Source: Dissulfurispira thermophila (lineage in GTDB: Bacteria; Nitrospirota; Thermodesulfovibrionia; Thermodesulfovibrionales; Dissulfurispiraceae). From it: DNA of 64,000 bases. The DNA is taken from positions 1,922,001-1,986,000 of the forward strand of contig NZ_AP022873.1 of NCBI RefSeq assembly GCF_014701235.1, written 5' to 3'. The stretch's first letter is position 1. The number at the start of each line of letters is the position of its first letter. The notes below the pieces were generated by a model. The model saw nothing but the letters and a program-made list of their open reading frames with translations. It was not told where the DNA came from and searched no databases. Below, piece by piece: positions 8,405 to 43,524 of the stretch. The position numbers and the translations under genes are program-made.

Positions 8405-8779
8405 CTAAAACCTCCTTAAACGCCTATGGCGAACTAAAAACAGCTCAATTAAGTAATCAATTAGATGACAGATGCCGCGAAAAGGCTTTAAACTCCGTAC
8501 TTGTAACTACATCTATCTTGAATCCGTCACCACCTATTAGCGGATACTTATGATACTTATTGAGTAATACATTTATAGTCCCCTCATATATGCTTGAACC
8601 AACACTTTTAAAAGACTTTGAGCAGTGTCTGTCATCTAAAATCAGCTCAATTAGGCTGAAGGCTATAGGCTGAAGGCTGAAGATAAAATCCAATCTTGAA
8701 TTTTAAATCTTAAATCTTAAACTTTAAACCTTCAACCTTGAATCGCCGAAGGTGTTATCCCCTTCACCCCTTCACCACT
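8405..8779. other. Intergenic repeat region with possible coding debris
   Basis: This gap holds the second copy of the 116-bp repeat (8660-8775), the second copy of the 55-nt repeat (8590-8645, also at 2843-2897) and TTCACC units at 8757-8792. A minus-strand open frame at 8457-8693 contains a protein-like stretch (NVLLNKYHKYPLIGGDGFK) but starts and ends in repeat DNA; I read it as a gene remnant at most. Confidence 0.5.
8660..8775. repeat. 116-bp direct repeat, copy 2
   Basis: Partner of 7160-7275, differing at two visible positions (GGCTATAGG for GGCTTTAGG, GGTGTT for GGCGTT) and continuing into TTCACC octamer units. Confidence 0.9.
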
Positions 8780-9199: not shown

Positions 9200-9273
9200 C
9201 TCACGCCCTTGGCGATTTAAAACTCAAAATTCAAATTCTCAGCAGTAGCCCAAATGGCTAACGCATAGTGTCT

Positions 9274-9302
9274 TTTTTAACATTATTTGCACAACATGTC
9301 AA
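9274..9302 (-). promoter_or_regulatory. Candidate σ70-type promoter for the PCuAC gene
   Basis: On the minus strand TTGACA is followed after 17 nt by TAAAAA. The -35 box is perfect and the -10 box weak. It lies about 75 bp upstream of the PCuAC start. Confidence 0.4.
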
Positions 9303-9395
9303 CTTGAAGTTTTAAGTTTAGAATTGAAAAAAAGGCGAACAAAAGTGTTCGTCCAATTGGCGGAATAGAGGGTTTCAGAGGTCACGCCTCCCAAA

Positions 9396-9482
9396 TTATT
9401 TCTGGATTATAAAACTCATAGTGCCTACCTCGTCTTTCATATCGATAAGCTTATAGCCGTTCCTCCCGAGTTTGTCAGTTAA
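9396..9482 (-). pseudogene. C-terminal remnant of an unidentified small protein
   Basis: An open minus-strand stretch encodes DKLGRNGYKLIDMKDEVG and ends with a stop, without any start or upstream open frame. The wording resembles the C-terminal half of DUF4177-like small proteins, but this is a guess. The rest of 9200-9719 shows no gene. Confidence 0.3.
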
Positions 9483-9679
9483 TTTTCATAACCAATTGAT
9501 AATAGTGGATATTAGGTCGCAACTCTGTGCATTTTTGCACTACAAGGTATTTAGTGCTTTAACTGTGATTAAGCTAAAGAAGTGAAAATGAGGACGAACT
9601 GACAAACTCTGGAAATATAATCAAGAATAGGCATTGAAACGTAAAGGAACATGGTCACTAAGAACTAAGAAAGGTTAAG

Positions 9680-9707
9680 GTGGCGGTTCAGATATCTGAA
9701 CCGCCAC
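9680..9707. terminator. Perfect 28-bp palindrome after the rhodanese gene
   Basis: The two halves (GTGGCGGTTCAGAT and its complement) meet at GATATC with no mismatch. It lies 12 bp beyond the stop codon of the minus-strand cytochrome/rhodanese gene. A U-tract is poor, so it may act as a transcript-end stabiliser instead of a strong terminator. Confidence 0.6.
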
Positions 9708-9719
9708 AATCTTCAGGTA

Positions 9720-11090
9720 CTACTTCTGCGTTAAAACTTCCTTTGGCGGTTTCCCATCCAACCAAAATACATTTTTATATCCTTTATCTTTCAGAAAACG
9801 CCACACCTGCAGTGCACGATTGCCAGCCGCACAGTGTATAACTACTTTTTTGTCCTGCGGTATTTCCTTCCACCGTCCTGTTATAATTACTGGTGTTGGA
9901 ATTGTCAATGCTCCCGGAACCGAGCCTTTAAGGTACTCCTCAGGGCTCCTGACATCAACAATGACGGTATCTGAAGGAGTAGCTTTTGCGAGTTTTTTGA
10001 ACTCTTCAACAGTTATCGCACCAGGCAACAGCTTTTTGGGAAGAGCAGCGGGCATTTCTTTTCTTATTGTATTACTTTCTATCTGGTAGCCCTTAGCTTT
10101 CCATAGATCAATGCCGCCGTTAAGAATTGATACCTTCTCATACATATTTGCTTTAAGGGTCAAATATGCTTTGACAGCTTCTTCGTTATTATCTGAATAA
10201 AGAATAACCCTCGTATTTTTCCTATCTTCAGGCAGATTATCATATAGATTCTTAATCTGACTCAACGGATAATTGAATGAGCCAGGTATCTGACCTTTTT
10301 TAGCTTTTTCTTCGCTTCTTAAGTCAACGAGGATATGCGGTATGCCTTCATCAATAGCCATCTTTACAAATTCAGGCTCGGTGTACCACGGCAACATTGC
10401 CTCTTCCCATACCTTATGACCTGCGAGCATGTATTTTGCATTCTTATATCCCAACAACTCCTTTACCACACGGGTAAAGTGGGGGCTCATACCTCATGTT
10501 CCTCCACGGCAATAAGAGACTATTAAAGTGTTCTTGTCTTTTGGAAGACGATCTATGTATGCAGATAATTCATAATAGGGCAATAAAACAGCATTTGGCA
10601 GGTGACCTTCAATATAATTATCATAACCTCGGGCATCAAACAGCATCCAGTCGCCGTCCTTGGGTTTTCTTTTAAGGAGTTCCACCACTTCATGTATATA
10701 GATTACATCCTCTGGATTTTTAAATGAGTAAGATGGCTTATAACTCAACTCATCAGCATAGACCTCAGTCCCTTTAAGCGAAGAGAATCTGATTTTTACC
10801 CCTTCATTGTCAGGCAAATCTCTTGCTGTCTTCAAATTTTTCATCTTCGTGTTTCTATCATAATGAACATCCCAGATTGTATTTCCTGTTTTTAATTTAA
10901 ACAACCCATCATTTCCAATTTGTGAACCCGTCACAACAGTGCCCCAGATTTCATTACTTTCTGCCTTATGGCATGACACGCAGGTTTCTGAAATCCGAGA
11001 CTTGTCTGCTGCTGTCACATTGTTTGAATAGGCTACAATAACAACGGCCACTGCTATCAGGACAGAAAAGAGACCCTTTAGCTTTTTCAT
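9720..11090 (-). CDS. Exported cytochrome c/triple-rhodanese protein with in-frame TGA (probable selenoprotein)
   Basis: Reading through one TGA (10496-10494) gives a 456-residue protein. It has a signal peptide (about 1-27), a haem c motif CVSCH at 36-40, and three rhodanese domains. Domain 1 has its catalytic loop at SYCRGGT-TGA-GMSPHF, so the TGA (residue 199) lies five residues after Cys194, where related proteins can have a second Cys. Domain 2 (about 239-335) has no active-site Cys; domain 3 (about 356-450) has HCAAGNRA with Cys420. Without read-through, the domain 1 fold would be cut in half. A SECIS-like hairpin follows. A σ54 promoter and a NtrC-type binding site lie upstream, next to a σ54 activator gene. 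Likely role: periplasmic sulfur (or selenium) transfer coupled to redox. Confidence 0.82.
10461..10479 (-). promoter_or_regulatory. SECIS-like hairpin in the rhodanese gene
   Basis: Fourteen nt after the TGA on the minus strand, CTTTACC pairs perfectly with GGTAAAG around the 5-nt loop CGTGT. The loop begins 21 nt after the TGA and has G at position 2, fitting bacterial SECIS geometry. Confidence 0.65.
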
Positions 11091-11124
11091 ACACTAACCT
11101 CCTTTAGTTTTTGCTCTATATTTC

Positions 11125-11139
11125 GCAAATGATGTGCCA
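11125..11139 (-). promoter_or_regulatory. σ54 promoter of the cytochrome/rhodanese gene
   Basis: The minus strand reads TGGCACATCATTTGC, with GG and GC separated by exactly 10 nt as σ54 requires and both boxes near consensus. It lies about 35 bp upstream of the start codon, followed by an AAGGAGG ribosome binding site. Confidence 0.8.
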
Positions 11140-11194
11140 GAGGTTTGGACCTTGAATTTAAAGGGTTTTTATGTCAAAGACTTCAAAGATGCGA

Positions 11195-11225
11195 TTGCAT
11201 TCTGCAATGCCCTTGCAGAATGCAA
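11195..11225 (-). promoter_or_regulatory. Upstream activator binding site (paired inverted repeats)
   Basis: TTGCATTCTGCAA at 11195-11207 and its exact reverse complement TTGCAGAATGCAA at 11213-11225 lie 18 bp centre to centre. They sit about 60-90 bp upstream of the σ54 promoter and directly abut the stop codon of the σ54 activator gene. I infer that they bind the adjacent activator. Confidence 0.65.
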
Positions 11226-11227
11226 TG

Positions 11228-12565
11228 TTATTCGAGATTGTACTTTTTTATTTTTCTCCAGAGGGTCGTAACATCTATTCCGAGGGACTCTGCTGCCTTG
11301 TTTTTCTGACCTTTAAACTCCCGAAGAGTGCGCATTATCAAAAATCTCTCCATCTCATCGATTGTCATCAAATGAAGACAGGATAAAGGATCTGCAGGAC
11401 TGCCCTTGATTTCAGGAGGCAGAGATTGAGGGGTTATCTCTGACGATGTTTCCATAATAACTGCCCGCTCTATAACATTTTCTAATTCCCTCACATTGCC
11501 CTGCCATGAATATCCATTTAAAATCTCAATTGCGTCAAGACTTATGTTTTTTATGGACTTATTTAACTTTCTGCAGTACTTGTTAAGAAAGTGATATGCA
11601 AGAATGGGTATGTCATCTTTTCTTTGTCTCAAAGGCGGGATATCTATATTTACCACATTCAATCTATAAAAGAGGTCTCTTCTGAAAGTTCCCGAGTTCA
11701 CTGCCTCCATAAGATTGGCATTTGATGCTGCTATTATCCTCACATCAACCTGCACAGGTTTTGATGAGCCCACCCGCATAATCATGTTTTCTTGTAGCAC
11801 TCTGAGCAGTTTTACCTGCAGTGATGCAGTAGTGTTGTTTATCTCGTCAAGGAAAATTGTGCCACCCGAAGCAGTTTCAAACAATCCCTTCCTTTGTGCC
11901 ATTGCCCCTGTAAATGCACCTCTTTCATGTCCAAAGAGTTCAGACTCAAGCAGTGTCTCTGTCAATGCCCCGCAGTTTACTGGCAAGAAAATCTTTTGTG
12001 CCCTTGCACTATTTTTATGAATCTGCCTGGCAACGAGTTCCTTTCCTGTGCCAGTCTCTCCCTGAATCAAGACAGTAGCATCAAGGGGTGCAACCTTTTC
12101 TATGATGCCTTTTATATCCCTGATTGCTCTACTTACACCTATAATGTCATCTTGAAGAAAACTCTTTACTTCCCTCTGGAGTCTCTTGTTCTCATAAATT
12201 AAAAAGAGATGTTCCGCAGCCCTTTTAATAATAAGCAAAAGTTGGTCAGGGTCAAAGGGTTTTTGAATATAGTCATAGGCGCCTTTTTTTATAGCCTCTA
12301 TAGCAGATTCTATAGTCCCATGAGCAGTAATCATAACAACAAGGGCATCAGGATTAGATTGCTTTGCGGTAGTCAATATCTGCATGCCATCCACATAGGG
12401 CATCTTTAGATCAGTGATGACAATGTCGTAATGCCTTTCTCTGAGTAGAATAATCGCCTCCCGACTGTCAGAGGTTGCTGCTGCACTGTAGCCTTCTTCT
12501 GATAATATCTCCACTATGAGCTGGTTCATTCGCAGGTCATCATCTATGACGAGTATATCAAGCAT
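11228..12565 (-). CDS. σ54-dependent NtrC-family response regulator
   Basis: Receiver domain (DILVIDDDLRMN, phospho-Asp in DIVITDLKMP, Lys in DYIQKPFDP), AAA+ domain with GETGTGKE, the σ54-contacting GAFTGA loop (ERGAFTGAM) and a C-terminal Fis-type helix-turn-helix (NKAAESLGIDVTTLWRKIKKY). I place the start at ATG 12565, 15 bp after the kinase stop, since an open frame further upstream overlaps the kinase gene and lacks family similarity; ATG 12577 is also possible. It should activate the neighbouring σ54 promoter at 11125. It is a paralogue of the regulator at 47513-48853. Confidence 0.93.
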   Translation of the reverse strand: MLDILVIDDDLRMNQLIVEILSEEGYSAAATSDSREAIILLRERHYDIVITDLKMPYVDGMQILTTAKQSNPDALVVMITAHGTIESAIEAIKKGAYDYIQKPFDPDQLLLIIKRAAEHLFLIYENKRLQREVKSFLQDDIIGVSRAIRDIKGIIEKVAPLDATVLIQGETGTGKELVARQIHKNSARAQKIFLPVNCGALTETLLESELFGHERGAFTGAMAQRKGLFETASGGTIFLDEINNTTASLQVKLLRVLQENMIMRVGSSKPVQVDVRIIAASNANLMEAVNSGTFRRDLFYRLNVVNIDIPPLRQRKDDIPILAYHFLNKYCRKLNKSIKNISLDAIEILNGYSWQGNVRELENVIERAVIMETSSEITPQSLPPEIKGSPADPLSCLHLMTIDEMERFLIMRTLREFKGQKNKAAESLGIDVTTLWRKIKKYNLE

Positions 12566-31716: not shown

Positions 31717-32073
31717 TCATAAAGTTCTAATCCTTATTTTTTTAATAGTAACCACTGTGAATTTACCGTAAAGTTCAGTTCCAAACTTTTTAAGCAAAAT
31801 AATTAAAGATGATGAAATCTTTTGAAACTCTGTGGAGTTATATCGCAAAAAGATTACTCCTATAGACTTTTCCTTATGGGCAAAAATCCACTCCCCGAAG
31901 TCCTTATCTTCAGTTATAATGATGGCATTAAAGGTTTTTGAAAGTTCCAGAACTTTTCTATCAGATGCGCCTTGATAATCTTTTAAAACAGAGATGATTT
32001 CAAAGCCAGCCTCTTTTAGGTTTAGCACTATTCTAAAGTCAAGACTTTCATCAGCGAGCAGTTTAAGATGCAA
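31717..32073 (-). CDS. DUF5615 PIN-like toxin
   Basis: A 118-residue PIN-like nuclease of the DUF5615 group: LLADESLDFRIVLNLKEAGF at the start and IIITEDKDFGEW in the middle supply the acidic residues. It overlaps the upstream DUF433 gene by 11 bp; DUF433/DUF5615 pairs are a common toxin-antitoxin arrangement. It marks the left part of the defence island downstream of sufC. Confidence 0.85.
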   Translation of the reverse strand: MHLKLLADESLDFRIVLNLKEAGFEIISVLKDYQGASDRKVLELSKTFNAIIITEDKDFGEWIFAHKEKSIGVIFLRYNSTEFQKISSSLIILLKKFGTELYGKFTVVTIKKIRIRTL

Positions 32074-32296
32074 TCAATTCCTCCTCTGCTATCACATCCG
32101 CAGAATATTTGATAGATGCAAGTATGTCCTCTCTTGTCAGTTGAGGATATGCCTCAAGGAGTTCTTCAATGGTCATTCCCTCTGAAAGCTTCCTCAATAT
32201 CAGTTCAACAGTTATACGGGTGCCTTTAATAACTGGCTTCCCGAGCATTATATCAGGATTTGCAGTTATTCTCTCCTTATAAGACTGTGTATCCAT
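32063..32296 (-). CDS. DUF433 antitoxin
   Basis: A 77-residue DUF433 protein with the family core PDIMLGKPVIKGTRITVELI and a helix-turn-helix (EGMTIEELLEAYPQLTREDI). It precedes and overlaps the DUF5615 toxin gene and should neutralise it and autoregulate the pair. Confidence 0.9.
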   Translation of the reverse strand: MDTQSYKERITANPDIMLGKPVIKGTRITVELILRKLSEGMTIEELLEAYPQLTREDILASIKYSADVIAEEELIAS

Positions 32297-32327
32297 TGCT
32301 AATCATCTCCTTTCTTTAAAACAAACC

Positions 32328-32576: not shown

Positions 32577-32658
32577 TACACCAATCCTGTGTTAGTGTTG
32601 TGGTTGATGATTAAGTCAAGTTCCTCATCTGTAAAACCATAATGACGGGCAAGGATAA
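32577..32658 (-). pseudogene. C-terminal tail remnant of an Eco57I-type methylase
   Basis: Encodes ILARHYGFTDEELDLIINH and a stop, nearly the same as VLARHYGFTEEELDFIINYD at the end of the intact methylase (35900 region). Nothing further upstream survives, so this is a relic of a second methylase gene. Confidence 0.65.
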
Positions 32659-32661
32659 GAA

Positions 32662-33129
32662 TTATTCTTTAGCTAATAATAATGCCATTTTTAGAGCTTC
32701 ATCTGATATATAAAATCTGTGTCTCTTTAAACCCTCCAGAAGGGGTTTTATTTCAGAGATTATTCCCTTATGCTTGGCAGCAATAAGTAAGCCCAATGTG
32801 CCAATAACAGGAATCTCTAAAGATTTTGCCAATCTCCTTGCCTTGAGATCGTCAAATAATAAAGTGTCAGCTTTTATTGAACGGAATAGGGCAATTGCCT
32901 CTGCTTCACCTATATCAACTTCCAGATAGAATTTTTCAGCATCTGATAACTCTTTATTTGAAAGATTTTCAACAAATATCCATCCAGGTGTCACATAATC
33001 ACCTGGTCTGAGCCATTCTTTATCAACAGAAGGCGGTATCAATACTTTATTAAATAATCTGCCAAGTATCCAGAGATGATCTACTTTATCAAAGAGTATT
33101 AAAGGACTTGTATTAGAGACAGCAATCAT
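32662..33129 (-). CDS. DUF3368 PIN-domain toxin
   Basis: A 155-residue VapC-like PIN nuclease: AVSNTSPLILFDKV, the acidic DIGEAEAIAL, LLFDDLKARRLA and GTLGLLIAAKHKG are the family blocks of DUF3368. It begins 3 bp after the UPF0175 antitoxin gene, its usual partner. All acidic positions seem intact. Confidence 0.9.
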   Translation of the reverse strand: MIAVSNTSPLILFDKVDHLWILGRLFNKVLIPPSVDKEWLRPGDYVTPGWIFVENLSNKELSDAEKFYLEVDIGEAEAIALFRSIKADTLLFDDLKARRLAKSLEIPVIGTLGLLIAAKHKGIISEIKPLLEGLKRHRFYISDEALKMALLLAKE

Positions 33130-33132
33130 GAA

Positions 33133-33396
33133 TTACTTCACTATGGTTTTTACTTCTTCTTCAAGCTCTTCCGCAGTTATACGAATAAATGGTATCCCCT
33201 TCCTCCCCGCATATCTGATAAATTCAAATCTTTCCATACCAAGTATTTCTGCTGCCTTTCCGCTGGACAATCTACCTTCTCTATATAATTCAAGCACTGC
33301 CGCTTCCTTGATTAACTCAGCACTATCCTGATAGGTAGTTGCAAGCTTATCAAGAACTTCGGATGGCAATGTTATTTGTATTGTTCTAATCGGCAT
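33133..33396 (-). CDS. UPF0175 antitoxin
   Basis: An 87-residue UPF0175 protein: helix-turn-helix around YREGRLSSGKAAEILGMERF and the C-terminal GIPFIRITAEELEEEV. Such proteins neutralise DUF3368 PIN toxins. It is the first gene of the pair. Confidence 0.9.
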   Translation of the reverse strand: MPIRTIQITLPSEVLDKLATTYQDSAELIKEAAVLELYREGRLSSGKAAEILGMERFEFIRYAGRKGIPFIRITAEELEEEVKTIVK

Positions 33397-33444: not shown

Positions 33445-33480
33445 TCATCCTTCAGTGTCTTTTCCCATCCCGTATTTGAT
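33445..33480 (-). pseudogene. Second methylase C-terminal tail remnant
   Basis: Encodes GIKYGMGKDTEG and stop, similar to DIKYRMGITADG at the end of the intact methylase. Too short to judge alone, but it lies among other RM debris. Confidence 0.4.
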
Positions 33481-33518: not shown

Positions 33519-33635
33519 TTATAACACTCCTTGTGATTTTTCCTTCCTTATCCTCTCAAGCAATAATGATGCGGGTTCATCATCAAGGTTCTGAGGAACT
33601 AGTTTGCCCTCAAAGGCTCGTTTGAGAATGCTCTG
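33519..33635 (-). pseudogene. HsdS C-terminal remnant (type I RM specificity subunit)
   Basis: The minus strand reads QSILKRAFEGKLVPQNLDDE then PASLLLERIRKEKSQGVL and stop. This is the standard ending of HsdS proteins (ILKRAFEGKLVPQ-P-DEPA). The rest of hsdS, hsdM and hsdR are absent, so a type I system once lay here. Confidence 0.8.
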
Positions 33636-33679: not shown

Positions 33680-34171
33680 TTACCTCAAAAACTCTATTTC
33701 TTTGTTAACTGACTTAAACAGATTTGATATGTTGCCATCAGGGTTTAAATGGCCCACAACTATATGGTCTGCTATATCTATCATGACCTTATTCCTTATC
33801 ATTGCAGTTTCTGCGGTAACCCTTTTGACCTCTCTATCAAAGGGGGAAAGGATGAGAAGTCTTCCAACATCGAGGGGCTTTTTGAGTTCTGGTTCAATCC
33901 TTTTCTTCATCCCCCTTGCCAAAATAATGATTAAAGGCTGATGACCCCTTAAAAGATAACGAAGGACATCTTTTTCAATCAGGCTATGAAAGCCTGATAT
34001 GACACATCTTCCCTCATCTCGCATCCTGACTGCCCAGTCATGGCACCTGAGAATCGCATCACCATGGATGTTTCTACTGCATAGAAATGCGGTCTTATGC
34101 CATGTGAGTATGCCTGTGTTACCCACATGGTCCTTAATAATGCCTGAATTGAGGATCTCCTCTTGAGTCAT
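33680..34171 (-). CDS. DprA-like SLOG-fold protein, last gene of the methylase/DarTG operon
   Basis: A 163-residue protein resembling short DprA/Smf-type (SLOG fold) proteins: CVISGFHSLIEKDVLRYLLRG, LIIILARGMKKR, AGRLLI-like VGRLLILSPFDREVKRVTAE and IADHIVVGH. It lacks the DprA C-terminal winged helix. DprA proper loads RecA on ssDNA; short relatives in defence islands may bind nucleotides or ssDNA. It overlaps darG by 4 bp (ATGA), so it belongs to the operon. Function in the system unknown. Confidence 0.75.
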   Translation of the reverse strand: MTQEEILNSGIIKDHVGNTGILTWHKTAFLCSRNIHGDAILRCHDWAVRMRDEGRCVISGFHSLIEKDVLRYLLRGHQPLIIILARGMKKRIEPELKKPLDVGRLLILSPFDREVKRVTAETAMIRNKVMIDIADHIVVGHLNPDGNISNLFKSVNKEIEFLR

Positions 34172-35244
34172 AGAGGGGCTAGAATAGGAAGTTTATTAAG
34201 TGGATAGAGTTTCTCTTTGAACTGCATGAGACGTTTGAAGGCTATTTCTATCAACTCTTTTTTAAAAACATCGTATTTCCTTTTACTCCATCTGAGGATA
34301 GCCTTCTGGAAGTCTTCAATGGTCTGAATCTTATTTTCGCGGTCGTTAAATAATATCCAGTCAACAGTTGCAAGTAATTCAAGCCCGAAAGGTGATTCAA
34401 ATCCTTCTATAATCTTTGAAATTATTTCAATTCTCTGGATTTCTGTGTCTGAGCAGTATTTATCTATAAAGTCTTTGATTTCAGCAAGTTTTTCATTATT
34501 CAGATATATATTATCGTAGGGCCTGCTATCAAGAATTGGTTTCTCCGTAAGGAGATATGAGCCCCTCAGGTGATGTAATAAATGCTGGAGATTGTGGGCA
34601 TATGGACCATAATAATATTTTTTGAATTGCAATTTCAGGTCTGCTTGTCCGAGTCTCTGGAGAAAATAGGCAACTTTTTGTATCTCAAGGAGTGTAATTT
34701 CATAACCAAGGACTCTATACAATTCAACCAGATAAAGGAGCATCGCCCTTTGTTTGGTTAGCTTAGCATTTGTTGATATGGGCATCAGATTTATACTATC
34801 AGGCTCATAGACAAGAATCTCTATATCCAATTCTCCGAGTTTGTCCTCAATAATTCTTTTGACCTTTTCCCACTTCAACCCACCCTGACCTGCTCCAATG
34901 GGCGGGATAGCTATGGATTTTATGTTCAAGTCTTTGATAACCTTAATCAAATCATCAAGTCCTGCCTCTATAAATCCGTAACTTGAGCGATGCATCCAGT
35001 GTTTCTTTGTAGGGAAGTTAATGATCCATCTGGGATTAATAAGGCTGTTTGTTGATGTAACAAACATCTTTCCAATAGTAACCCTGCCTTCTTCGCATGT
35101 CTTTTTATAGAGTCTGTAATTCTCAGGGAACCTCTCTTTGAACTGTAGGGCGATCCCCTTACCCATAACACCAACAGTATTTACAGAATTCACCAGTGCT
35201 TCGGCGTTGCTTTCAAAGATATTTCCTTTGATAAATTTAATCAT
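34168..35244 (-). CDS. darG: DarG antitoxin (macrodomain ADP-ribosyl-DNA hydrolase)
   Basis: DarG removes ADP-ribose from thymidine in DNA and also binds DarT directly. The 358 residues comprise a macrodomain (about 1-150; IKGNIFESNAEALVNSVNTV, GVMGKGIALQF, PPIGAGQGGLKW) and a C-terminal DarT-binding part (about 165-358; VELYRVLGYEITLLEIQKVA). It overlaps darT by 4 bp and follows it, the usual order. Here the pair is embedded in a methylase/helicase operon. Confidence 0.93.
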   Translation of the reverse strand: MIKFIKGNIFESNAEALVNSVNTVGVMGKGIALQFKERFPENYRLYKKTCEEGRVTIGKMFVTSTNSLINPRWIINFPTKKHWMHRSSYGFIEAGLDDLIKVIKDLNIKSIAIPPIGAGQGGLKWEKVKRIIEDKLGELDIEILVYEPDSINLMPISTNAKLTKQRAMLLYLVELYRVLGYEITLLEIQKVAYFLQRLGQADLKLQFKKYYYGPYAHNLQHLLHHLRGSYLLTEKPILDSRPYDNIYLNNEKLAEIKDFIDKYCSDTEIQRIEIISKIIEGFESPFGLELLATVDWILFNDRENKIQTIEDFQKAILRWSKRKYDVFKKELIEIAFKRLMQFKEKLYPLNKLPILAPL

Positions 35245-35870
35245 GGCTCAAAATACCATTCTGGTTTTATCGTGACAAAAAAATCCTGGCTTGGCCTCTC
35301 TATCATATCGTTTATTATATTATACATCTTTTCTGTCTTACAGCCTATACCCATAATTGCTGTCACAGGCAAGTGTTTATAAACAAGACATTCTGCCTGT
35401 TTAATTTCTTTCCTTTCAGTTCCATATTGTCTGCCCCATTTATTACTTTCAATTATATCCCAATTGAGTTTCTTAAGGTCTGCATATTTGTTATAAAATT
35501 GGGCATAATCCAACTTCGCATGTCTATTAGTAAAGACATATTTAATCTTCATCCCTTCCAGCTTTTCAACACTGCTCACTATATAAATTATATCCTCTTG
35601 CGGGGTCTTTATAACCTCTGGGTCATTGCCCATTGCTATAACATAGAGCATAGGAGACCTTACAGTAAAATAAAATGGCACATAATCGGCAAGGGTACCG
35701 GAAGGCTCTATAGGCACTTGCCGTTCATTCCTTTTATCTATAAGCGACGGAAAGCCAATTTGTATGAAATTAGGGTCATTAATATTAGAATTCTGACAAT
35801 GAATGCCGTTTTGCAGTATAAAAGGGAGATTTCTGTAATGGGTGATCCTATATATAAAGGTTGAATTCAT
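35241..35870 (-). CDS. darT: DarT toxin (ssDNA thymidine ADP-ribosyltransferase)
   Basis: DarT transfers ADP-ribose from NAD+ to thymidine in ssDNA, stopping replication; it protects against phage. The 209-residue protein has FIYRITHYRNLPFILQNGI (NAD site), DYVPFYFTVRSPMLY and the catalytic Glu in EIKQAECLV at residue 160. All expected residues are present. Start overlaps the methylase stop by 4 bp, so DarT synthesis depends on methylase translation. This coupling is unusual for a free toxin-antitoxin module. Confidence 0.93.
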   Translation of the reverse strand: MNSTFIYRITHYRNLPFILQNGIHCQNSNINDPNFIQIGFPSLIDKRNERQVPIEPSGTLADYVPFYFTVRSPMLYVIAMGNDPEVIKTPQEDIIYIVSSVEKLEGMKIKYVFTNRHAKLDYAQFYNKYADLKKLNWDIIESNKWGRQYGTERKEIKQAECLVYKHLPVTAIMGIGCKTEKMYNIINDMIERPSQDFFVTIKPEWYFEP

Positions 35871-38800
35871 CCTTCTTCATCTTCCCCATCTGCAGTAATG
35901 CCCATCCTGTATTTGATGTCATAGTTGATGATGAAGTCAAGTTCCTCCTCAGTGAAACCATAGTGCCTTGCAAGCACACAGTCTATCTCGTCTATGATGG
36001 GTTTGGAGAGTTTATGATAATACTCATACTTCGTTTGTTTGGTTCCCACATAACATTTTTTGTTATCAAGGTCCTCCATTAACTTATCAGTAAATTCAGA
36101 AAGTGGCGCTTTAATAAAGGTTGACATCTGATTTAAATCTAACAGGAAACTATCTAATTCTTTGGATGTAATATGCCATCCATCACTTATAATTTCCCAA
36201 AACCAAAAATATAATGTTGAGTTGAAAACCGAAACCAGAATTTTCTTATCTAATTCAGTGGTTGTTTGAATTTTTTTATATTCATTAGATGCCATAAGTT
36301 CTGTAAAACATTTACCCCAGTACATCATTCTCATGGCCAAATAAAATGATGATTGACCATGAAAATTTTTTGAGATTGCACATTGTTGTGAGGCAATCTT
36401 GCGAATAATTTCTTTTTCAATTGAACTGCCGCCTTTTAACCAGCATAATGAATTATCAGTAGATGGATAATATATTAGAACCTCCATTAAATGTTTACGC
36501 TCATCTTTATTTTCTTTGCTATACCAATGTTTATATGCCGTAGTTAACAACATATTTTGGGTATTTGTTAAAGATTTTTTAAATAAAATTATAGATAATT
36601 TTTGGTGGACTCCAGTAAAAAGTGATCCTGGTCTGTCGGCATAGGTGCTACACCATGTAAAATCTGAATTTTGAGTTAATATCTTGCGAACTGGCTCCAT
36701 TCGTGGTGTACTTGGTAACGAAATTGGTACTATTAAGCCTAAATCGCCTTGTTTGACTAATAATTGATCTCCCCTCTCCACCACAAACGCATACAGATTC
36801 CCACATTCCTCTGTCTCATATCCTTTGATTGTGTATTGTTTCTTTACCTTGTTGTATTCCACATAAGGTGGATTGCCTATTATCACATCAAATCCACCTT
36901 TTTCATGGACAATGCCATAGAATTCTATAAACCAGTGAAAGGGCTGGTGGGTCTTGAGCCATTGTTCATATTGGCTTCTTTTATTTACATCTATTCCATA
37001 TTCACCAGCGAGGTATTTGTTTAATTCCTCTTCTAATGCCTTAAGCCTACTGCGTATCTCCTGTTTATGCTCTGGTGGGACTATGCCGTCTCCCTCTGTC
37101 TGGTATCTCCTGAAGGCATCAAATGCCTGCTGTAGGTCTGCTGCCTTTGTGGTTATTTTCTGCATTGAGTTTTCAAAATCAAATTTGGTTGTAACTGCCC
37201 TTTCTACATCCTCATATCTTGCAAAGCCAACAAGGGTATTTCCTGCCCTAATGTTAAAGTCCATATCAGGAAGTGGCTCAATACCAAAGTTGGGTTTATC
37301 CGGGTCAGGGTCAACCTGTGCAGCGAGTTTCAAAAATAGCCTGAGTTTACATATCTCCACCGCCTCTTCCATGATGTCAACACCATAGAGGTTGTTGAGG
37401 ATTATACTTTTGTAAATAAAATACTGCCTGTTTGGATGGTTTTCCACCATCTCAAGGATGTTTGAGAAGTCTTCCATCTTTTTGTGTGGCAAGAGAGGGT
37501 AGCCATGAGGGGTGTATTTGACCTTTCCATTATGCTTTGCTGCCTCGTCTTTTAGCATCTCCTCCATCCTGTCAAGACATGATTCATAAAGAGGTTCAAG
37601 GATATTGAGGGCTGTAAACAAGAAGGCACCTGAACCACAGGTTGGGTCAAGAACAGTGATGTCTCTTATTGCACCCCAGAAGGCACGGAGCAATTCAGGA
37701 CTTTCACAGTTTGCAATCACATCCTGGGCAAACTGCCTTATATCAAGGTTGTATGTAATAAAGTCGTTTATGTCTCTGATCTCGCCTGAGAGTATCTTTT
37801 TCTTTACTTCCTCATACCTCTGCCTTCTTGCTATGACCTCTCGCCATATCTCTGTTGGTAGGGCATATTCTGAGGGTGCTGGTTTGTTCCAGTCCTTTCT
37901 TAACTTGATGGTAAGGATGTCATTTATTGACTCTACCTCACCAACTATGTTGTGCAGTGTGGAAGGATTAAGCCCATTTGCAATGTTTTCAGGAAGTGAC
38001 AGGGGGCGGCCAAGAGGACGATCATTGTAAACATCCCATGTAATCCCGTGTCTTACCGCATGGTATATGTATCTGTCAGGGTTTTCCTGTAGGATATTCC
38101 ATATTGTCTTACCATCAGAATTTTCAAAGGCACTCTTACATCTTGACTTTACCCTATCAAAGATAAAGGGGATTATTGTATTTTTGCTTATGTATTCTGT
38201 AATATCCTCCTTCGTGTAGTAGGCCCCCATCTCTTTCTGGTTGATGTATTTTTCAAATATGTAACCAAGAATGTCAGGGTTGATCTCCTCCCTACCACTG
38301 GCACTTTTAATAGACCTTTCAGGGTCAAGGACCCAGTCGTATTCATCAAAATAGTCAAAGATTGATTCAAAGGCACTGTCAGGTATTTGAATATCATGAC
38401 CGTACTTTTCTTCAACTGGATGGACATCAAATATCCCACCATTTATATATGGCACCCTGCCAAGCAGTTCCTCAAGTTCAGGAGAGTGTTTTATCTTTCC
38501 AAGACCCTCGTGGAACAGGCGAAGTAAAAAGTAACGATAGAAGGAGTAAAACCTGTCTTTACCAAATCTTGCCTGCATCATCCTCAGGCGATTTCTTAAA
38601 TAATGGGGGTCTCCATCAAGAAAGCCCTTTTTCTGTATGAAGTATAAAAACATGAGCCTGTTGAGCATTACAGAGGCATACCACTCTCTGTCTTCGGGTA
38701 TAGGTATTGCCTCTATAAAATCAAGAAACTTTGCATGCTCTTTCTTAAACCTATCATAGAATCTCTTTGTAACCCTTTCCACATCAAAGGCAGTTCTTGC

Positions 38801-39259
38801 CCTCTGGGCAACCTGTGTTATAGAGATACCCTGTTCTTCTTCCTCAAGAGAGATATACAGATGCTGGAGTTTTGTCAAAAGTGAATCCCCAGGCTGATTG
38901 CTCATATACTCAAATGTTCTTGGTCTGAGCGGTCTTGAGGGCTCCCTTTTTACCCACATCCATAACTGTCTTGATTTATCAGAACTTAAAAAGACTATAA
39001 GATGCTCAAAACTCGTTTCAGATAGTTTTCTTTCAAGTTTAAGGCGGGTATTGTGGTCAGGAAGTCTGTTGTCATGGCTTGTGTGCTGCCAGACTACAAA
39101 GCCCTTTTTCTCGGCAATTGCCTTAAGTTCATAATTTGTATCATTAACAGGAATTGCAATGGTGTTATGGCAGGGTTCCCAGCCCAGTTCTTCAATAAAG
39201 AGCCTTTTCAGGTCTGCACTTTGAAGGAGTGGTCTTGCACGGACAAAATCAAAGGACAT
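35867..39259 (-). CDS. Eco57I/PglX-like adenine-specific DNA methyltransferase
   Basis: A 1130-residue N6-adenine methylase: N-terminal nuclease-like or helper region (about 1-200), SAM motif DPTCGSGAFLFTALNIL near residue 538 and catalytic NPPYVEYNKV near 793, followed by target-recognition and C-terminal parts (LARHYGFTEEELDFI). Size and layout fit type IIG-like, BREX PglX or DISARM DrmMI proteins. It starts 3 bp after the helicase gene and overlaps darT, in the same operon. Target sequence cannot be read. Two relics of its C-terminus lie nearby. Confidence 0.9.
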   Translation of the reverse strand: MSFDFVRARPLLQSADLKRLFIEELGWEPCHNTIAIPVNDTNYELKAIAEKKGFVVWQHTSHDNRLPDHNTRLKLERKLSETSFEHLIVFLSSDKSRQLWMWVKREPSRPLRPRTFEYMSNQPGDSLLTKLQHLYISLEEEEQGISITQVAQRARTAFDVERVTKRFYDRFKKEHAKFLDFIEAIPIPEDREWYASVMLNRLMFLYFIQKKGFLDGDPHYLRNRLRMMQARFGKDRFYSFYRYFLLRLFHEGLGKIKHSPELEELLGRVPYINGGIFDVHPVEEKYGHDIQIPDSAFESIFDYFDEYDWVLDPERSIKSASGREEINPDILGYIFEKYINQKEMGAYYTKEDITEYISKNTIIPFIFDRVKSRCKSAFENSDGKTIWNILQENPDRYIYHAVRHGITWDVYNDRPLGRPLSLPENIANGLNPSTLHNIVGEVESINDILTIKLRKDWNKPAPSEYALPTEIWREVIARRQRYEEVKKKILSGEIRDINDFITYNLDIRQFAQDVIANCESPELLRAFWGAIRDITVLDPTCGSGAFLFTALNILEPLYESCLDRMEEMLKDEAAKHNGKVKYTPHGYPLLPHKKMEDFSNILEMVENHPNRQYFIYKSIILNNLYGVDIMEEAVEICKLRLFLKLAAQVDPDPDKPNFGIEPLPDMDFNIRAGNTLVGFARYEDVERAVTTKFDFENSMQKITTKAADLQQAFDAFRRYQTEGDGIVPPEHKQEIRSRLKALEEELNKYLAGEYGIDVNKRSQYEQWLKTHQPFHWFIEFYGIVHEKGGFDVIIGNPPYVEYNKVKKQYTIKGYETEECGNLYAFVVERGDQLLVKQGDLGLIVPISLPSTPRMEPVRKILTQNSDFTWCSTYADRPGSLFTGVHQKLSIILFKKSLTNTQNMLLTTAYKHWYSKENKDERKHLMEVLIYYPSTDNSLCWLKGGSSIEKEIIRKIASQQCAISKNFHGQSSFYLAMRMMYWGKCFTELMASNEYKKIQTTTELDKKILVSVFNSTLYFWFWEIISDGWHITSKELDSFLLDLNQMSTFIKAPLSEFTDKLMEDLDNKKCYVGTKQTKYEYYHKLSKPIIDEIDCVLARHYGFTEEELDFIINYDIKYRMGITADGEDEEG

Positions 39260-39262
39260 AAT

Positions 39263-42200
39263 TTACTCCCCTCTTATACCAAGAGAACAAATAATCATAG
39301 GTTCAGAAACTGATGTATCCTCCCTCTGGACACAGAGACGGTCCTCTTCATAAAGGGTGATTATCAGTTCGGCAAGCCTCTCGTCAGATATGCCTACCCT
39401 CAGTTCTCTATTAATCAGGTCTCTGGCATACTCTGTTAGCGGTCTTTCATAGATAGCATCTATGGCTAAGTGGAGTGTCTTTATATCAAAAAGGGTCCCG
39501 CTTATCTTCTGTGCATAATCCTTGAGTTTCTCATAGGCACGCCTTCGTGCACTGGTTGGCCTGCCAAGTTGCCCTCCTGTGAGGGGGTGTTCCTTGTGGA
39601 TGTATTGCACTGCACTCTTCACGAGTTCGTGATGATTCTCAAGCCTTTGAAGTGCTGGGGTGTCAGGACTACACTCTGCGGCACGGAAAATCTCATACTG
39701 AGACTCTGTAACTATGTTTCCATCTTCATCAAGCCAGGCAAGGGCATCATTTCCATCAGCAGTTCGGACATAGACCATGACACCTGTTGACTTTGTCCCA
39801 GCGCTGATAGTTGAGATAGGTTTTGTTGAAAAGACAACATTTGGCAGGTCGGGTATCTTATTTTTGAGTTCTGGTTTTATATCACAGGCATTCTTCCATA
39901 CCTGATAGGCATAAGAAGCGAGGTCAACCTCTTCGTCCTCTGGGTCATCAAGGACATCGGATTTTTCAGTAAAAAGGTCTCTGATGACATCATCATGTCT
40001 CTCATCCTCAAAGAATGCCTCATCTGTACCGATGACCTCGGCGTTTTCTCTGAGCCTCTGCCTTATCCTTGAACGGAGCCTAATCAGGCGCTCAACACCT
40101 TCAGCGGGAAGGAAGGTGTAACAAAGGACTTCTTCTGATGACTGCCCGATTCTGTCAACCCTTCCCGCTCTCTGGACAAGACGGATTATTGCCCATGGGA
40201 GGTCGTAATTCACAATTATATGACAATCCTGAAGATTCTGTCCCTCGCTTAATACATCCGTTGTAATCAATACCCTTAATTCATCTATTTCACCAGTTAT
40301 TTGATTACTACGAGGACTGAGCCTCTGGGCATAGCGTGTTGGATTCTCCGTGTCTCCTGTAACACCTGCCAAGTTATCAATGCCAAGTTCTTTGAGTTTA
40401 CTTTCAAGGTATTCTACAGTATCTGAAAACTGTGAGAAGATGAGTATTTTTTCATCAGAGTGCGTTTGTGTAATCAATTCATAGAGAGACTTGAATTTAT
40501 TGTCCTTTTCTGTCACCCATTCTTGAGCAAGTTCAAGTATCTCTGAGAGTCGCTCAGAATCTTTCTGCAGGTGTCCTTTAAGTTCATCAACAAATAGTGT
40601 GGGCCTGAGCCAGTCAAAGTTGTTTGAATATCTATTCTTGAGGAGACTGTAGTAGGCTCCTGCAAGTCTGGAAAAATCATCAGATAATTCCCCTGCAGAT
40701 GCTCGCTCATTATCTTCATCAATGCCAAATAATATATCCTCACTATCGCTATCCTTATTCCTCGTATCAAACAACGCTGCATCCTGTGTCCCTATGGGGA
40801 GAGGTAGTCCATTTTCAATGGCATAAATATAGATCTGGTTTCTCAAAATATGCCTTTTAATTGACAGAAGAAAGGAATGTCCACTACTTTCAAGCCGCTT
40901 AAAAAGGTTTGTTCTGCAGAACCCTATGAGTCTTTTGCCTGCCCTTGATAGGTTTCTTATTATTCTGTCCTCATCTGTTGTTGGCGGTTCATCAGGCATA
41001 GGTTTCAGGTAATTGCCAAGACCATATCGTGGTAGATGGAGGTTACAGATTATGTCTACAACCCTGTCTGAATAGAGCCGGGCAAATTGATCATCAGGGT
41101 CATTATCATTGACAGAAAAGGAGAGAGTTTTCGGTAGCCTTTTGGGGAAATAAAACCGGTTGTTGCCCTCAAGTACCAGAAACTTTCTGTCATCCTTCCT
41201 CTTGGTTCTTCCACAGGTTGGGCAGATATTCTGCGTTGCGGTAAGTATTGTATTGCAGGATGAACACTCCACATAGGCATAGTTTCTCTCAACAAAACTC
41301 CTCGTCCTCCTTACCATAAAGAGTCTCATCAACTCACGCCAGTCATCAGGATAGTGGCTCTTTTCAAAGGCGGCCAGACTGTTCACAGGACATTGATGTC
41401 TTCTGGTAAACTCGTCAATCCTGCCATCGCACTCACGCCTGATATACTCCTCAGGGCTGATGCCAACTTGCTCATCTGCGTCAAGAAAAAGCCTTAACTG
41501 GTTTGCAAGGTCAAGATACATCTTATTATAGGGTGTTGCAGAAAGGAGTATGCACTTGCTCCCGTTCCTTTCGATGTAGTCCCTTATTATAGCCCATCTC
41601 CTCCCTTCACGATTGCGGAGATTATGACTCTCGTCAATAATAACAAGCCTGTATCTTCTTAATTCGGGAAGAACGGTCTGAACCTGTGTAATTGATACAA
41701 CCTTTGCAATCAATCTGTAGCGATGGACATAATCCTCCCACATTGATATGAGATTCTTGGGGCATAGAATCAATGCCTCAAGGAGATACGGCGGATCCTG
41801 AAAGACCCTGGCAAGTGCAGTTGCCATAAGGGTCTTGCCAAGCCCAACCACATCACCGAGGATGACCCCGCCTCTTTTGTCAAGATGTCTTGCAGCAATC
41901 CTTACGGCAGCAGATTGAAATTCAAGGAGTTTTTCCCGCATATCATAGGGTATTTCAAACTCACTCAGCCCCGCCCTTGCCTCTTCTGCAAGATGATAAG
42001 CCATCTTTATATAAATCCAGTAAGGCAGTAACGGGTCTTCCCTTGCCCAGCTCTCTTCTACAACCTTTATGAGTTCATCTGTTATATCAATGCAATATCT
42101 ATCATTCCATCTGTCCTCAAACCATCTTGCAAGTTTCTGTGCAGCATCGTGGTCAAGGACATCTATATTCAGTTCACCCTGATGGGAAAGGCCTGATATG

Positions 42201-42691
42201 GTGAGATTGCTTGAGCCGAGAAAACCGATAATTGGGTTAAGAGGGTCGTTTCTAAAACACAGGTATAACTTTGCGTGAAGTGGATGTCTTAAGAAGAGTT
42301 TGACCACAACCTTCCTTGCTTTTAATTGAGAACAAAGACGCCTGAGCCCCGCCTCATCATCATTTGTTGGCACACCTATTGTGAGCTGTTTTTTAAATTC
42401 CTCTGCAAGCTTTCGCTTAAAGCGGATTATAGTCTGGTTGCTGATAATATTTTCCTGTTGGATAGTTGTATATATCTCTCTTAATTGTTCATCTGGTAAT
42501 CTCTGCATTCCGATGAGTAATCTGCATTGGTTGCCTTCACCACCCTGCCAGTTTTCTATTAGAAAATCTATAGTTTTCCACCCCCTGAGATTGAAATAAC
42601 CCACACAGAAATCAGCCCTGCCGGATAGCTCAAGGCTCTTTTGTAGTGCTGGCAAGAGTTCAATCTCTATGTTGTCAAATATCCGTGGCAT
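39263..42691 (-). CDS. PLD-domain SNF2 helicase
   Basis: A 1142-residue protein. The N-terminus is a phospholipase D-like nuclease half (HAKLYL at 139, GSSNLT about 159-164). A SNF2/HepA-type helicase follows: GDVVGLGKT (279-287), IIDESHN (351-357), LLSATP (392), a four-Cys zinc ribbon (Cys476, 479, 490, 493) and the helicase C domain with RAGRVDRIGQ. Similar helicases work in DISARM class 1 (DrmD) and in helicase/methylase defence systems. It is the first gene of the five-gene operon. Confidence 0.9.
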   Translation of the reverse strand: MPRIFDNIEIELLPALQKSLELSGRADFCVGYFNLRGWKTIDFLIENWQGGEGNQCRLLIGMQRLPDEQLREIYTTIQQENIISNQTIIRFKRKLAEEFKKQLTIGVPTNDDEAGLRRLCSQLKARKVVVKLFLRHPLHAKLYLCFRNDPLNPIIGFLGSSNLTISGLSHQGELNIDVLDHDAAQKLARWFEDRWNDRYCIDITDELIKVVEESWAREDPLLPYWIYIKMAYHLAEEARAGLSEFEIPYDMREKLLEFQSAAVRIAARHLDKRGGVILGDVVGLGKTLMATALARVFQDPPYLLEALILCPKNLISMWEDYVHRYRLIAKVVSITQVQTVLPELRRYRLVIIDESHNLRNREGRRWAIIRDYIERNGSKCILLSATPYNKMYLDLANQLRLFLDADEQVGISPEEYIRRECDGRIDEFTRRHQCPVNSLAAFEKSHYPDDWRELMRLFMVRRTRSFVERNYAYVECSSCNTILTATQNICPTCGRTKRKDDRKFLVLEGNNRFYFPKRLPKTLSFSVNDNDPDDQFARLYSDRVVDIICNLHLPRYGLGNYLKPMPDEPPTTDEDRIIRNLSRAGKRLIGFCRTNLFKRLESSGHSFLLSIKRHILRNQIYIYAIENGLPLPIGTQDAALFDTRNKDSDSEDILFGIDEDNERASAGELSDDFSRLAGAYYSLLKNRYSNNFDWLRPTLFVDELKGHLQKDSERLSEILELAQEWVTEKDNKFKSLYELITQTHSDEKILIFSQFSDTVEYLESKLKELGIDNLAGVTGDTENPTRYAQRLSPRSNQITGEIDELRVLITTDVLSEGQNLQDCHIIVNYDLPWAIIRLVQRAGRVDRIGQSSEEVLCYTFLPAEGVERLIRLRSRIRQRLRENAEVIGTDEAFFEDERHDDVIRDLFTEKSDVLDDPEDEEVDLASYAYQVWKNACDIKPELKNKIPDLPNVVFSTKPISTISAGTKSTGVMVYVRTADGNDALAWLDEDGNIVTESQYEIFRAAECSPDTPALQRLENHHELVKSAVQYIHKEHPLTGGQLGRPTSARRRAYEKLKDYAQKISGTLFDIKTLHLAIDAIYERPLTEYARDLINRELRVGISDERLAELIITLYEEDRLCVQREDTSVSEPMIICSLGIRGE

Positions 42692-42716
42692 GGATTATAA
42701 CTCCTCTTCACTAATA

Positions 42717-42812
42717 TTAACGATCTTCATAATGACTGCCTTTTATATTCTTTAATACCCATCCCTTGCTTTCTAAAATTTTACATAGGTCTTTCCCTGA
42801 TATACTTTTCAT
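42717..42812 (-). pseudogene. Truncated hicA
   Basis: MKSISGKDLCKILESKGWVL then KNIKGSHYEDR and a stop: the first 31 residues of a HicA toxin including the catalytic His, but no second half. Start overlaps the hicB remnant stop. Confidence 0.7.
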
Positions 42813-43017
42813 ACAGCAAGTTCAAGGACTTTGTCTTTTGGTTTGAGTTCAATCTTTTTCATATCAACTTCAAGACATGCCTCTATCGCCTCATATATAT
42901 TCTGTATGAGTTCATCCCATGAATCGAATCTCCTTGAGTAAAACATCCAGGTATTGCTGGAACCTCTGCCCGGTAACCCCCTTCCTCGGCATGATGAATT
43001 ACCACCTTTAATTTCAT
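42810..43017 (-). pseudogene. Frameshifted hicB
   Basis: Begins MKLKVVIHHAEEGGYRAEV then PAIPGCFTQGDS, then loses frame; the C-terminal part DELIQNIYEAIEACLEVDMK continues in another frame to the stop beside hicA. Together with the hicA fragment this is a dead toxin-antitoxin pair. Confidence 0.7.
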
Positions 43018-43018
43018 T

Positions 43019-43152
43019 TTAATTAACTCCCTTTAATTTTCCTTCTGCCTGAAAATTATAATAGCCATTTTTACTTATGATAACATGGTCTATAACCTCA
43101 ATCCCAACTATTTTACCCGCCTCAATAAGCCTATTGGTTATCTCTTTGATGC
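43019..43152 (-). pseudogene. RadC/JAB C-terminal remnant
   Basis: Encodes ITNRLIEAGKIVGIEVIDHV then IISKNGYYNFQAEG to a stop that overlaps the hicB remnant start. This is the end of a RadC-family gene; the rest is lost. Confidence 0.65.
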
Positions 43153-43524
43153 ATCAAGCAGTGTTACACTCACAAGTTCCTTTCCTTTGTATCTAAGGAT
43201 CACACTGTTTTTGAGCATCTCTGAATCAGCGGCTTTCTAAAGAGCTTCAAGATAAACCTTGATTGCTCAAATGTCTTTTTCTGACATTCCTTAAGCTCCA
43301 TATCTCAGTTTGATTTCAGGCTTTTAAGCAACCGTTCCTTAATCCCTATCAGAATCATAATCCCAGTTAAGGTTCTCTTTTTTCTCCAGTGCTTTGTCGC
43401 TTCCATACAGTCTTCCTTCTTTCAGAAGGTTTTGTAGCTATATTTTATAACAAAATACTATTTTTTAAATTTGTGAAGATGAATTGCTGAAGCGGTGAAG
43501 CGTTTTATCTGATACAATATTACT
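43153..43524. other. Gap with coding debris before sufBD
   Basis: No intact gene. Minus-strand fragments with protein-like wording occur (SVILRYKGKELVSVTLLD near 43170-43220; LLKEGRLYGSDKALEKKENL near 43370-43430) without starts. Two or three GGTGAAG-like units lie at 43473-43501. This marks the right edge of the island. Confidence 0.5.

What the first reader, a model, noticed from the sequence alone, without database searches (positions are those of the whole stretch)
33680..42691. Five-gene coupled defence operon: PLD-helicase, methylase, DarT, DarG and DprA-like protein
The genes are joined by a 3-bp gap and three successive 4-bp overlaps, so they form one translational unit. DarTG is known as a stand-alone anti-phage toxin-antitoxin; here the toxin is coupled to a helicase and DNA methylase resembling DISARM DrmD/DrmMI, with a short SLOG/DprA-like protein last. 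DISARM core genes drmA, drmB and drmC are absent. A plausible logic: the methylase/helicase recognises unmodified DNA and DarT acts on the exposed ssDNA, with DarG marking self. I do not recognise this five-gene set as a named system.
Basis: partly seen in the sequence, partly recalled or inferred. Interest (0 to 1): 0.87.

Follow-up and report, generated by a model that had tools for sequence, protein, structure and literature searches.

The report
Restriction-like operon carrying swappable DarTG toxin
A bacterial operon pairs a nuclease-helicase and a DNA methylase, which look like a restriction system with no established name, with an interchangeable DNA-damaging toxin and its antidote as a probable second line of defence against viruses.

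Summary
The five genes and their junctions are as described, but they are not one fixed five-part machine. The constant core is two genes: a PLD(HKD)-SNF2 helicase followed by a type-IIG-like N6-adenine methylase, found together in 50 loci (window included) in at least five phyla. A DprA/SLOG-like gene, usually last, is an associated third gene (15 of these loci). Other positions hold interchangeable cargo: HEPN-MNT, Fic, VapBC, ParE, PemK, AAA+DUF4276, OLD, AIPR, YhcG and others. DarTG2 is the cargo here. Its closest DarT (73%) sits beside a type I restriction subunit elsewhere, so DarTG moved independently. Yet the pairing recurs: a decayed sister locus keeps helicase'-'DarG-'DprA with another DarG lineage, and DarTG2 also sits in type I, type III, DUF499-type and a second HKD-helicase operon. 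Methylase and HsdS C-terminal ghosts beyond the cargo suggest turnover by recombination at restriction-gene ends. Best reading: a restriction-like core with DarTG2 as plug-in backup effector; no activity is shown. DarTG2 inside a type I operon is already published; this core and combination were not found in the papers I could search.

The parts
39263..42691 (-). Core gene 1: HKD(PLD)-SNF2 helicase, 1142 aa; BfiI/NgoFVII-like site H139xK141 ... GSSN162 ... E173; SNF2 motifs GDVVGLGKT, DESH, QRAGRVDRIGQ
   Evidence: Pfam PLDc_2, RE_NgoFVII, SNF2-rel_dom, Helicase_C; motif kept in 54 of 55 aligned orthologues; methylase follows in 50 loci
35867..39259 (-). Core gene 2: Eco57I-class N6-adenine DNA methylase, 1130 aa, PADLOC REase_MTase_IIG family PDLC03628
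   Evidence: 1069.6 bits over residues 10-1121; Eco57I; motifs DP.CGSGAFL and NPPY conserved
38735..39259 (-). N-terminal domain of the methylase (aa 1-175), shared even by partners whose methylase body differs; no conserved (D/E)xK nuclease motif
   Evidence: alignment; fold model pLDDT 93.2, no PDB fold match at E<=0.001
35241..35870 (-). Cargo: DarT2 ssDNA thymidine ADP-ribosyltransferase toxin, 209 aa, E160 present
   Evidence: NF048013 229 bits; phmmer to Thermus DarT 7omv 9e-31
34168..35244 (-). Cargo: DarG2 antitoxin, macro domain plus C-terminal region, 358 aa, K80 present
   Evidence: NF048014 407 bits; 5m31 2.6e-52
33680..34171 (-). Associated third gene: DprA/SLOG-like protein, 163 aa
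   Evidence: PsyrA model 48 bits; fold model matches ShosA 8zva and DprA; same family, usually last gene, in 14 other helicase loci
33519..33635 (-). Ghost of an HsdS C-terminus (QSILKRAFEGKLVPQNLDDEPASLLLERIRKEKSQGVL*)
   Evidence: translation; hits annotated 'restriction endonuclease subunit S' at 62-72% identity
32597..32670 (-). Ghost of the methylase C-terminus (LARHYGFTDEELDLIINHN) beyond the next toxin-antitoxin pair
   Evidence: tblastn E about 4e-9
32662..33396 (-). Next cargo-like pair: UPF0175 (33133-33396) and DUF3368 PIN-like protein (32662-33129), between the two ghosts
   Evidence: Pfam; PADLOC PDC-S70

Best explanation
The locus is a restriction-modification-like system with a plug-in abortive effector. 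(1) The methylase marks one strand of a non-palindromic site as N6-methyladenine. (2) The HKD-SNF2 helicase acts on unmodified DNA, translocates and cuts it with its BfiI/NgoFVII-like PLD site. (3) A cargo position after the methylase (and another between helicase and methylase) holds exchangeable toxin-antitoxin or abortive genes; here it is DarTG2, co-translated with the methylase. DarG normally holds and reverses DarT. When the restriction core fails or is blocked by a phage, DarT is released, ADP-ribosylates thymidines in ssDNA and stops replication. (4) The DprA-like protein is an accessory, probably a ssDNA or nucleotide sensor that tunes core or cargo, as DprA-like antitoxins do in ShosTA-type systems. 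Shown here by comparison: the conserved pair, conserved catalytic motifs, exchangeable cargo, independent mobility of DarTG, recurrence beside restriction genes. Inferred: restriction activity, the trigger of DarT, the role of the DprA-like protein.
For: Helicase then methylase in 50 loci (window included; a few are near-duplicates) from the own phylum, Chloroflexota, Pseudomonadota, Actinomycetota, Cyanobacteriota, Kapaibacterium and Pelobacter plasmid pPRO1. HxK/GSxN/E site kept in 54 of 55 helicases; the exception (Dolichospermum plasmid, L104) lost it and also has only a 285-aa methylase remnant, as expected if the methylase protects against the nuclease. The orthologue on Synechocystis pSYSX is by elimination M.Ssp6803IV: GAm6AGGC is 99.6% methylated (PMC7296061), M.Ssp6803IV and V are both on pSYSX (PMC6604393), V is the slr6095 type I enzyme, and SGL_RS01600 is the only other such methylase annotated on bases 1-101 kb. 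Cargo: HEPN-MNT, Fic, VapBC, ParE, KilA-N, YhcG, Bro, AAA+DUF4276, OLD, Schlafen/AlbA, AIPR, RhuM, PemK, IrrE. DarTG2 next to restriction genes elsewhere: HsdM|DarTG|HsdS, HsdS|DarTG|HsdR, Mod|DarTG|Res, DUF1156|DarTG|DUF499, methylase|DarTG|HKD-SNF2. Decayed L154 keeps helicase'-'DarG-'DprA with a DarG 59-65% like type-I-associated ones and 38% like the window's. DprA-like and helicase genes co-occur in 12 genomes against 1.6 expected among the same 396, p 8e-10, not corrected for relatedness. DarTG2 in a type I operon protects E. coli from phages (PMC12255303); PrrC is a latent nuclease embedded in a type I operon and freed by a phage anti-restriction peptide (PMC3874165).
Against: No activity data for any gene of this operon. 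Only one intact example has DarTG in this core among about 50 loci, so specific cooperation between DarTG and this core is not shown. DarTG alone is a working phage defence and may need no link to the core. The window's methylase ghost is short and half of the aligned stretch contains stops. Most relatives are draft genomes or MAGs; L154 could be a misassembly. The DprA-like gene is missing from about half of the complete loci and from all plasmid examples.
Confidence: 0.62

Rival explanations
1. DarTG (like the other toxin-antitoxin cargo) is an addiction module that settled in the operon because it makes loss of the defence locus costly; it takes no direct part in sensing or stopping phages together with the core.
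For: The cargo is chemically unrelated from locus to locus and mostly toxin-antitoxin; two more such pairs follow in the window; cargo decays readily.
Against: Several cargo types (AAA+DUF4276, OLD-TOPRIM, YhcG, AIPR) are defence or nuclease effectors rather than addiction modules; DarTG2 keeps returning to restriction operons of different classes and the RRDM island that holds it defends (PMC12255303); the overlap with the methylase suggests expression tied to the core.
Confidence: 0.25
2. One reading: one integrated five-part machine in which helicase and methylase find unmodified DNA and DarT modifies the ssDNA they expose, with DarG marking self.
For: Intact overlapping operon; DarT2 acts on ssDNA; decayed sister locus with the same order; a second HKD-helicase/methylase operon with DarTG inside (L062).
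Against: The pair occurs with many unrelated cargo genes and often none; the closest DarT is in another operon type; DarG is a general reversal enzyme, not a site-specific self mark (own knowledge).
Confidence: 0.08
3. Chance neighbourhood: defence-island crowding with no selection on the combination.
For: Defence genes cluster; ghosts of HsdS and methylase ends show heavy recombination here.
Against: Same position and orientation (after a methylase or specificity gene) in several independent cases and different restriction classes; DarTs in restriction operons cluster on the tree more than shuffled labels (6 changes against a mean of 12.1, 0 of 500 shuffles; labels incomplete).
Confidence: 0.05

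Closest known systems
Type-2 BREX-related (BR) systems, DUF499-centred (Rakesh and Krishnan 2026, PMC12839542)
   Same: HKD endoDNase fused N-terminally to a Swi2/Snf2 helicase as effector, N6-adenine methylase for self marking, backup effectors (HEPN-MNT, OLD-TOPRIM, PIN) inside the locus
   Different: No DUF499 in the whole genome here and no DUF3780 found (whose controls did not ring); methylase is of the Eco57I/IIG class; DarT is not mentioned in that paper
RRDM island: DarTG2 embedded in a type I RM operon, enteropathogenic E. coli (PMC12255303)
   Same: DarTG2 as cargo inside a restriction operon, with phage protection shown for the island
   Different: Host operon there is type I RM with RptR repressor and M48 peptidase; here an HKD-SNF2/IIG-like core and a DprA-like gene
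Type IIG and type ISP restriction enzymes
   Same: One-strand N6A modification of a non-palindromic site (by the Synechocystis orthologue, by elimination); SF2 motor plus nuclease logic of type ISP (own knowledge)
   Different: Motor and nuclease are on a separate PLD-type protein; the methylase N-terminus has no conserved (D/E)xK site
DISARM class 1 (DrmD, DrmMI)
   Same: SNF2 helicase next to an adenine methylase
   Different: DrmA, DrmB, DrmC absent; model hits partial
EcoprrI / PrrC
   Same: Latent toxin gene embedded in a restriction operon
   Different: tRNA nuclease silenced by the RM complex; DarT has its own antitoxin
ShosTA / PsyrTA DprA-like antitoxins
   Same: Closest fold match of the DprA-like protein is ShosA
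   Different: No phosphoribosyltransferase toxin here; short single-domain protein

Membership tests
DarTG2 toxin-antitoxin | DarT and DarG over curated cut-offs, adjacent, DarT first | tested here: met
   229/150 and 407/250 bits; 4-bp overlap
DarTG2 toxin-antitoxin | Catalytic Glu of DarT and Lys of the DarG macro domain present | tested here: met
   E160 and K80 aligned to Thermus proteins; roles from own knowledge
DISARM class 1 | drmA, drmB, drmC present | tested here: not met
   No such model among operon and ten flanking ORFs, apart from a shared-helicase hit of the helicase itself
DISARM class 1 | Helicase and methylase are full-length DrmD and DrmMI | tested here: not met
   NCBIfam DrmD 135 bits, cut-off 610; DrmMI 76 bits against IIG 1070 bits
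BREX | PglZ present | tested here: not met
   None in the genome; control rang
Type-2 BR system | HKD-SNF2 helicase plus N6 methylase | tested here: met
Type-2 BR system | DUF499 ATPase | tested here: not met
   None in the genome; control rang
Type-2 BR system | DUF3780 protein | tested here: inconclusive
   No match, but no control rang
Stand-alone type IIG restriction enzyme | Full-length match to a IIG-family methylase | tested here: met
Stand-alone type IIG restriction enzyme | Own N-terminal PD-(D/E)XK nuclease | tested here: not met
   No conserved (D/E)xK in 38 aligned methylases; no nuclease fold match
Stand-alone type IIG restriction enzyme | Cuts DNA by itself | not testable with these tools
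   Needs protein
RRDM-type island | DarTG2 inside a restriction operon | tested here: met
RRDM-type island | hsdM, hsdS, hsdR, RptR and M48 genes | tested here: not met
   Only an HsdS C-terminal ghost in the locus

The most novel reading that the evidence does not exclude
The helicase, methylase and DprA-like protein form a restriction platform with true effector sockets: the DprA-like protein senses the state of the core or phage ssDNA and gates whichever toxin is plugged in, and cargo is exchanged by recombination through the conserved 3' end of the methylase gene, leaving C-terminal ghosts.
Probability: 0.15. Interest if true: 0.75.

Novelty: new variant of a known kind. Interest (0 to 1): 0.52.

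Why it matters
It replaces a five-gene curiosity by a testable general statement: a widespread two-gene restriction-like core without a name in the libraries I could search, annotated so far as a lone type IIG enzyme and an unassigned helicase, carries exchangeable abortive effectors at fixed positions. DarTG2 repeatedly enters restriction operons of several classes at the same kind of place. That makes the question of how a restriction system and a DNA-ADP-ribosylating toxin are coupled directly testable in one operon, and links restriction genes, toxin-antitoxin pairs and DprA-like sensors.

Tried and rejected
DISARM membership: rejected. BREX: no PglZ. BR system: no DUF499. A nuclease domain in the methylase N-terminus: no conserved motif, no fold match. 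DarTG as an obligate part of the core: rejected by the survey. M.Ssp6803V (slr6095) as the orthologue: rejected, it is a type I M subunit. The paper naming M.Ssp6803IV's gene was not held, so the assignment rests on elimination. Helicase orthologues in phage records: none; DprA-like on plasmids: none. A weak second methylase-tail ghost at about 33448-33480 was not counted (chance level). A Thermococcus plasmid helicase (L106) and the Anaerolineales L062 operon belong to a more distant helicase subfamily (29-33%) and were not counted in the core. Promoter and terminator scans were uninformative.

Full report
CHECK OF THE OBSERVATION. The five ORFs are at the stated coordinates on the minus strand. 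The helicase and methylase are 3 bp apart, and the next three junctions are 4-bp overlaps. DarT and DarG are certain by curated models, and their key residues line up with the solved Thermus proteins. The 163-aa last protein has a DprA/SLOG fold: AlphaFold model pLDDT 94.7, best PDB fold matches ShosA 8zva and DprA. The helicase carries an N-terminal PLD domain (PLDc_2, RE_NgoFVII) and SNF2 domains. The methylase matches one PADLOC type IIG family over its whole length at 1070 bits, DrmMI at only 76. So the DISARM likeness is superficial.

WHAT IS CONSTANT. I searched the window's genome, relatives, broad samples of three phyla, and plasmids. Helicase orthologues at strict thresholds occur in 22 of 396 genomes of the own phylum, 23 of 251 of the Chloroflexota sample, 3 of 398 of the Pseudomonadota sample, and on plasmids of Cyanobacteriota, Pelobacter and Actinomycetota. 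Reading the neighbourhoods gave 50 loci, window included, in which an ORF of the methylase family follows the helicase in the same direction, 39 with no ORF between and 11 after small cargo; a few are near-duplicates. Loci without one are mostly contig ends; L118 is a real exception (methylase missing), and in L210 a methylase fragment lies upstream. The PLD site (LHAKLYL, GSSNLT, GELN) is kept in 54 of 55 helicases. The one exception, on a Dolichospermum plasmid, has also lost most of its methylase. That is what a restriction system predicts, though it is one case. Methylase motifs DP.CGSGAFL and NPPY are conserved, and the N-terminal 370 residues are shared even where the methylase body is of another kind. 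The N-terminal domain has no conserved nuclease motif and no PDB fold match at E<=0.001, so cutting most likely resides in the helicase protein (inference).

A CHARACTERISED RELATIVE. On Synechocystis 6803 plasmid pSYSX the pair is SGL_RS01585 (helicase) and SGL_RS01600 (methylase, 46% identical) with a VapBC-type pair between them. The literature places two methylases on this plasmid, M.Ssp6803IV and V (PMC6604393). V is the slr6095 type I enzyme, and GAm6AGGC, the motif of IV, is methylated at 99.6% of sites (PMC7296061). The annotation of bases 1-101 kb shows no other candidate, so SGL_RS01600 is probably the GAm6AGGC methylase. This is elimination, not a direct report; I recall, but could not check, that this methylase was reported as essential.

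THE DPRA-LIKE GENE. A profile found it in 15 helicase loci including the window, nearly always as the last gene, once upstream of the helicase (positions). In the same 396 genomes it occurs in 29, the helicase in 22, both in 12, against 1.6 expected (p 8e-10 by hypergeometric, without correction for relatedness). Several of the other DprA-like genes sit beside the methylase with the helicase deleted or not seen (L253, L255, L258, L260), while one genus has it alone (L251, L254). It is therefore an associated third gene, absent from about half of complete loci. DprA-like proteins are antitoxins in shosTA, syrTA and rqlHI (PMC9122126); a sensing or gating role here is inference.

CARGO. Between helicase and methylase, and between methylase and the DprA-like gene, the loci hold unrelated genes: HEPN-MNT, Fic, VapBC, ParE, KilA-N, YhcG nuclease, Bro, AAA+DUF4276, OLD-TOPRIM, Schlafen/AlbA, AIPR, RhuM, PemK, XRE-IrrE, macro-domain proteins, or nothing. 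DarTG is the cargo of the window. Its closest DarT (73%) is in a Desulfobacteraceae MAG beside HsdR and a YgjP-type gene, and the DarT tree joins these two with a Kapaibacterium DarTG that is followed by a DprA-like gene. DarTG therefore moves independently of the core.

THE PAIRING RECURS. In L154 (another family of the same phylum) a deletion joins helicase codons 1 to about 637 to DarG from residue 79, followed by the tail of a DprA-like gene (42 aa, 53% to L147). The DarG is 59-65% identical to DarGs of type I operons but 38% to the window's, so DarTG entered a helicase locus at the same position at least twice. L155 has helicase, methylase and a truncated DarG macro domain of other kin. 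L062 (Anaerolineales) has methylase-DarT-DarG-HKD helicase in a distant helicase subfamily. In other restriction classes: HsdM|DarTG|HsdS (L064), HsdS|DarTG|HsdR (L066, L072), Mod|DarTG|Res (L056), DUF1156|DarTG|DUF499 (L081), and more. DarTG2 in a type I operon is published and that island protects against phages (PMC12255303).

GHOSTS. Beyond the cargo lie fragments of restriction genes: an HsdS C-terminus at 33519-33635 and a methylase C-terminus at 32597-32670. Methylase C-terminal fragments downstream of the intact gene occur in five of 41 loci (window at 50% identity, L107 twice, L140, L141, L203 twice at 81-97%); a sixth weak hit, in L119, is not counted. Four internal segments per locus gave 3 hits in all. 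A single crossover through the conserved 3' end that brings new cargo and leaves the old end behind would give this pattern (inference).

MECHANISM AND RIVALS. Best reading: a restriction-like core with an exchangeable abortive effector, here DarTG2, that takes over when the core fails, in the manner of PrrC in EcoprrI (PMC3874165) and of the backup effectors described for BREX-related systems (PMC12839542). The main rival is that DarTG is an addiction module.

NOVELTY. The nearest published relatives are Type-2 BR systems, from which this differs by lacking DUF499, and the RRDM island. I found no description of the HKD-SNF2 plus IIG-like pair as a system in the papers I could search, a limited library. 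I file it as a new variant of a known kind.

Noticed in passing
window 42700-43330 (-): Region upstream of the helicase looks like broken fragments of RadC-type, HicB-type and HicA-type genes (read by eye).
   Followed up: no
window 31717-32297 (-): A further putative toxin-antitoxin pair, DUF433-like plus DUF5615, follows the UPF0175/DUF3368 pair; three small modules in a row downstream of the operon.
   Followed up: partly
L104 (Dolichospermum plasmid) 8001-12209: Helicase with lost HxK and GSSN residues next to a 285-aa methylase remnant: decay of both halves together.
   Followed up: partly
L081 6976-11410 and L070 939-5373: DarTG2 inserted in DUF1156/DUF499 (BREX-related type) operons, an association not mentioned in the BREX-related survey I read.
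   Followed up: partly
L251 13680-14150, L254 14307-14777: The DprA-like gene stands alone in one genus, near a UDP-galactopyranose-mutase-like gene.
   Followed up: no
L098 18291-20545 (pSYSX): A ubiquitin-like conjugation set (multiubiquitin, E2, ThiF, DUF6527) lies just downstream of the Synechocystis helicase-methylase operon.
   Followed up: no
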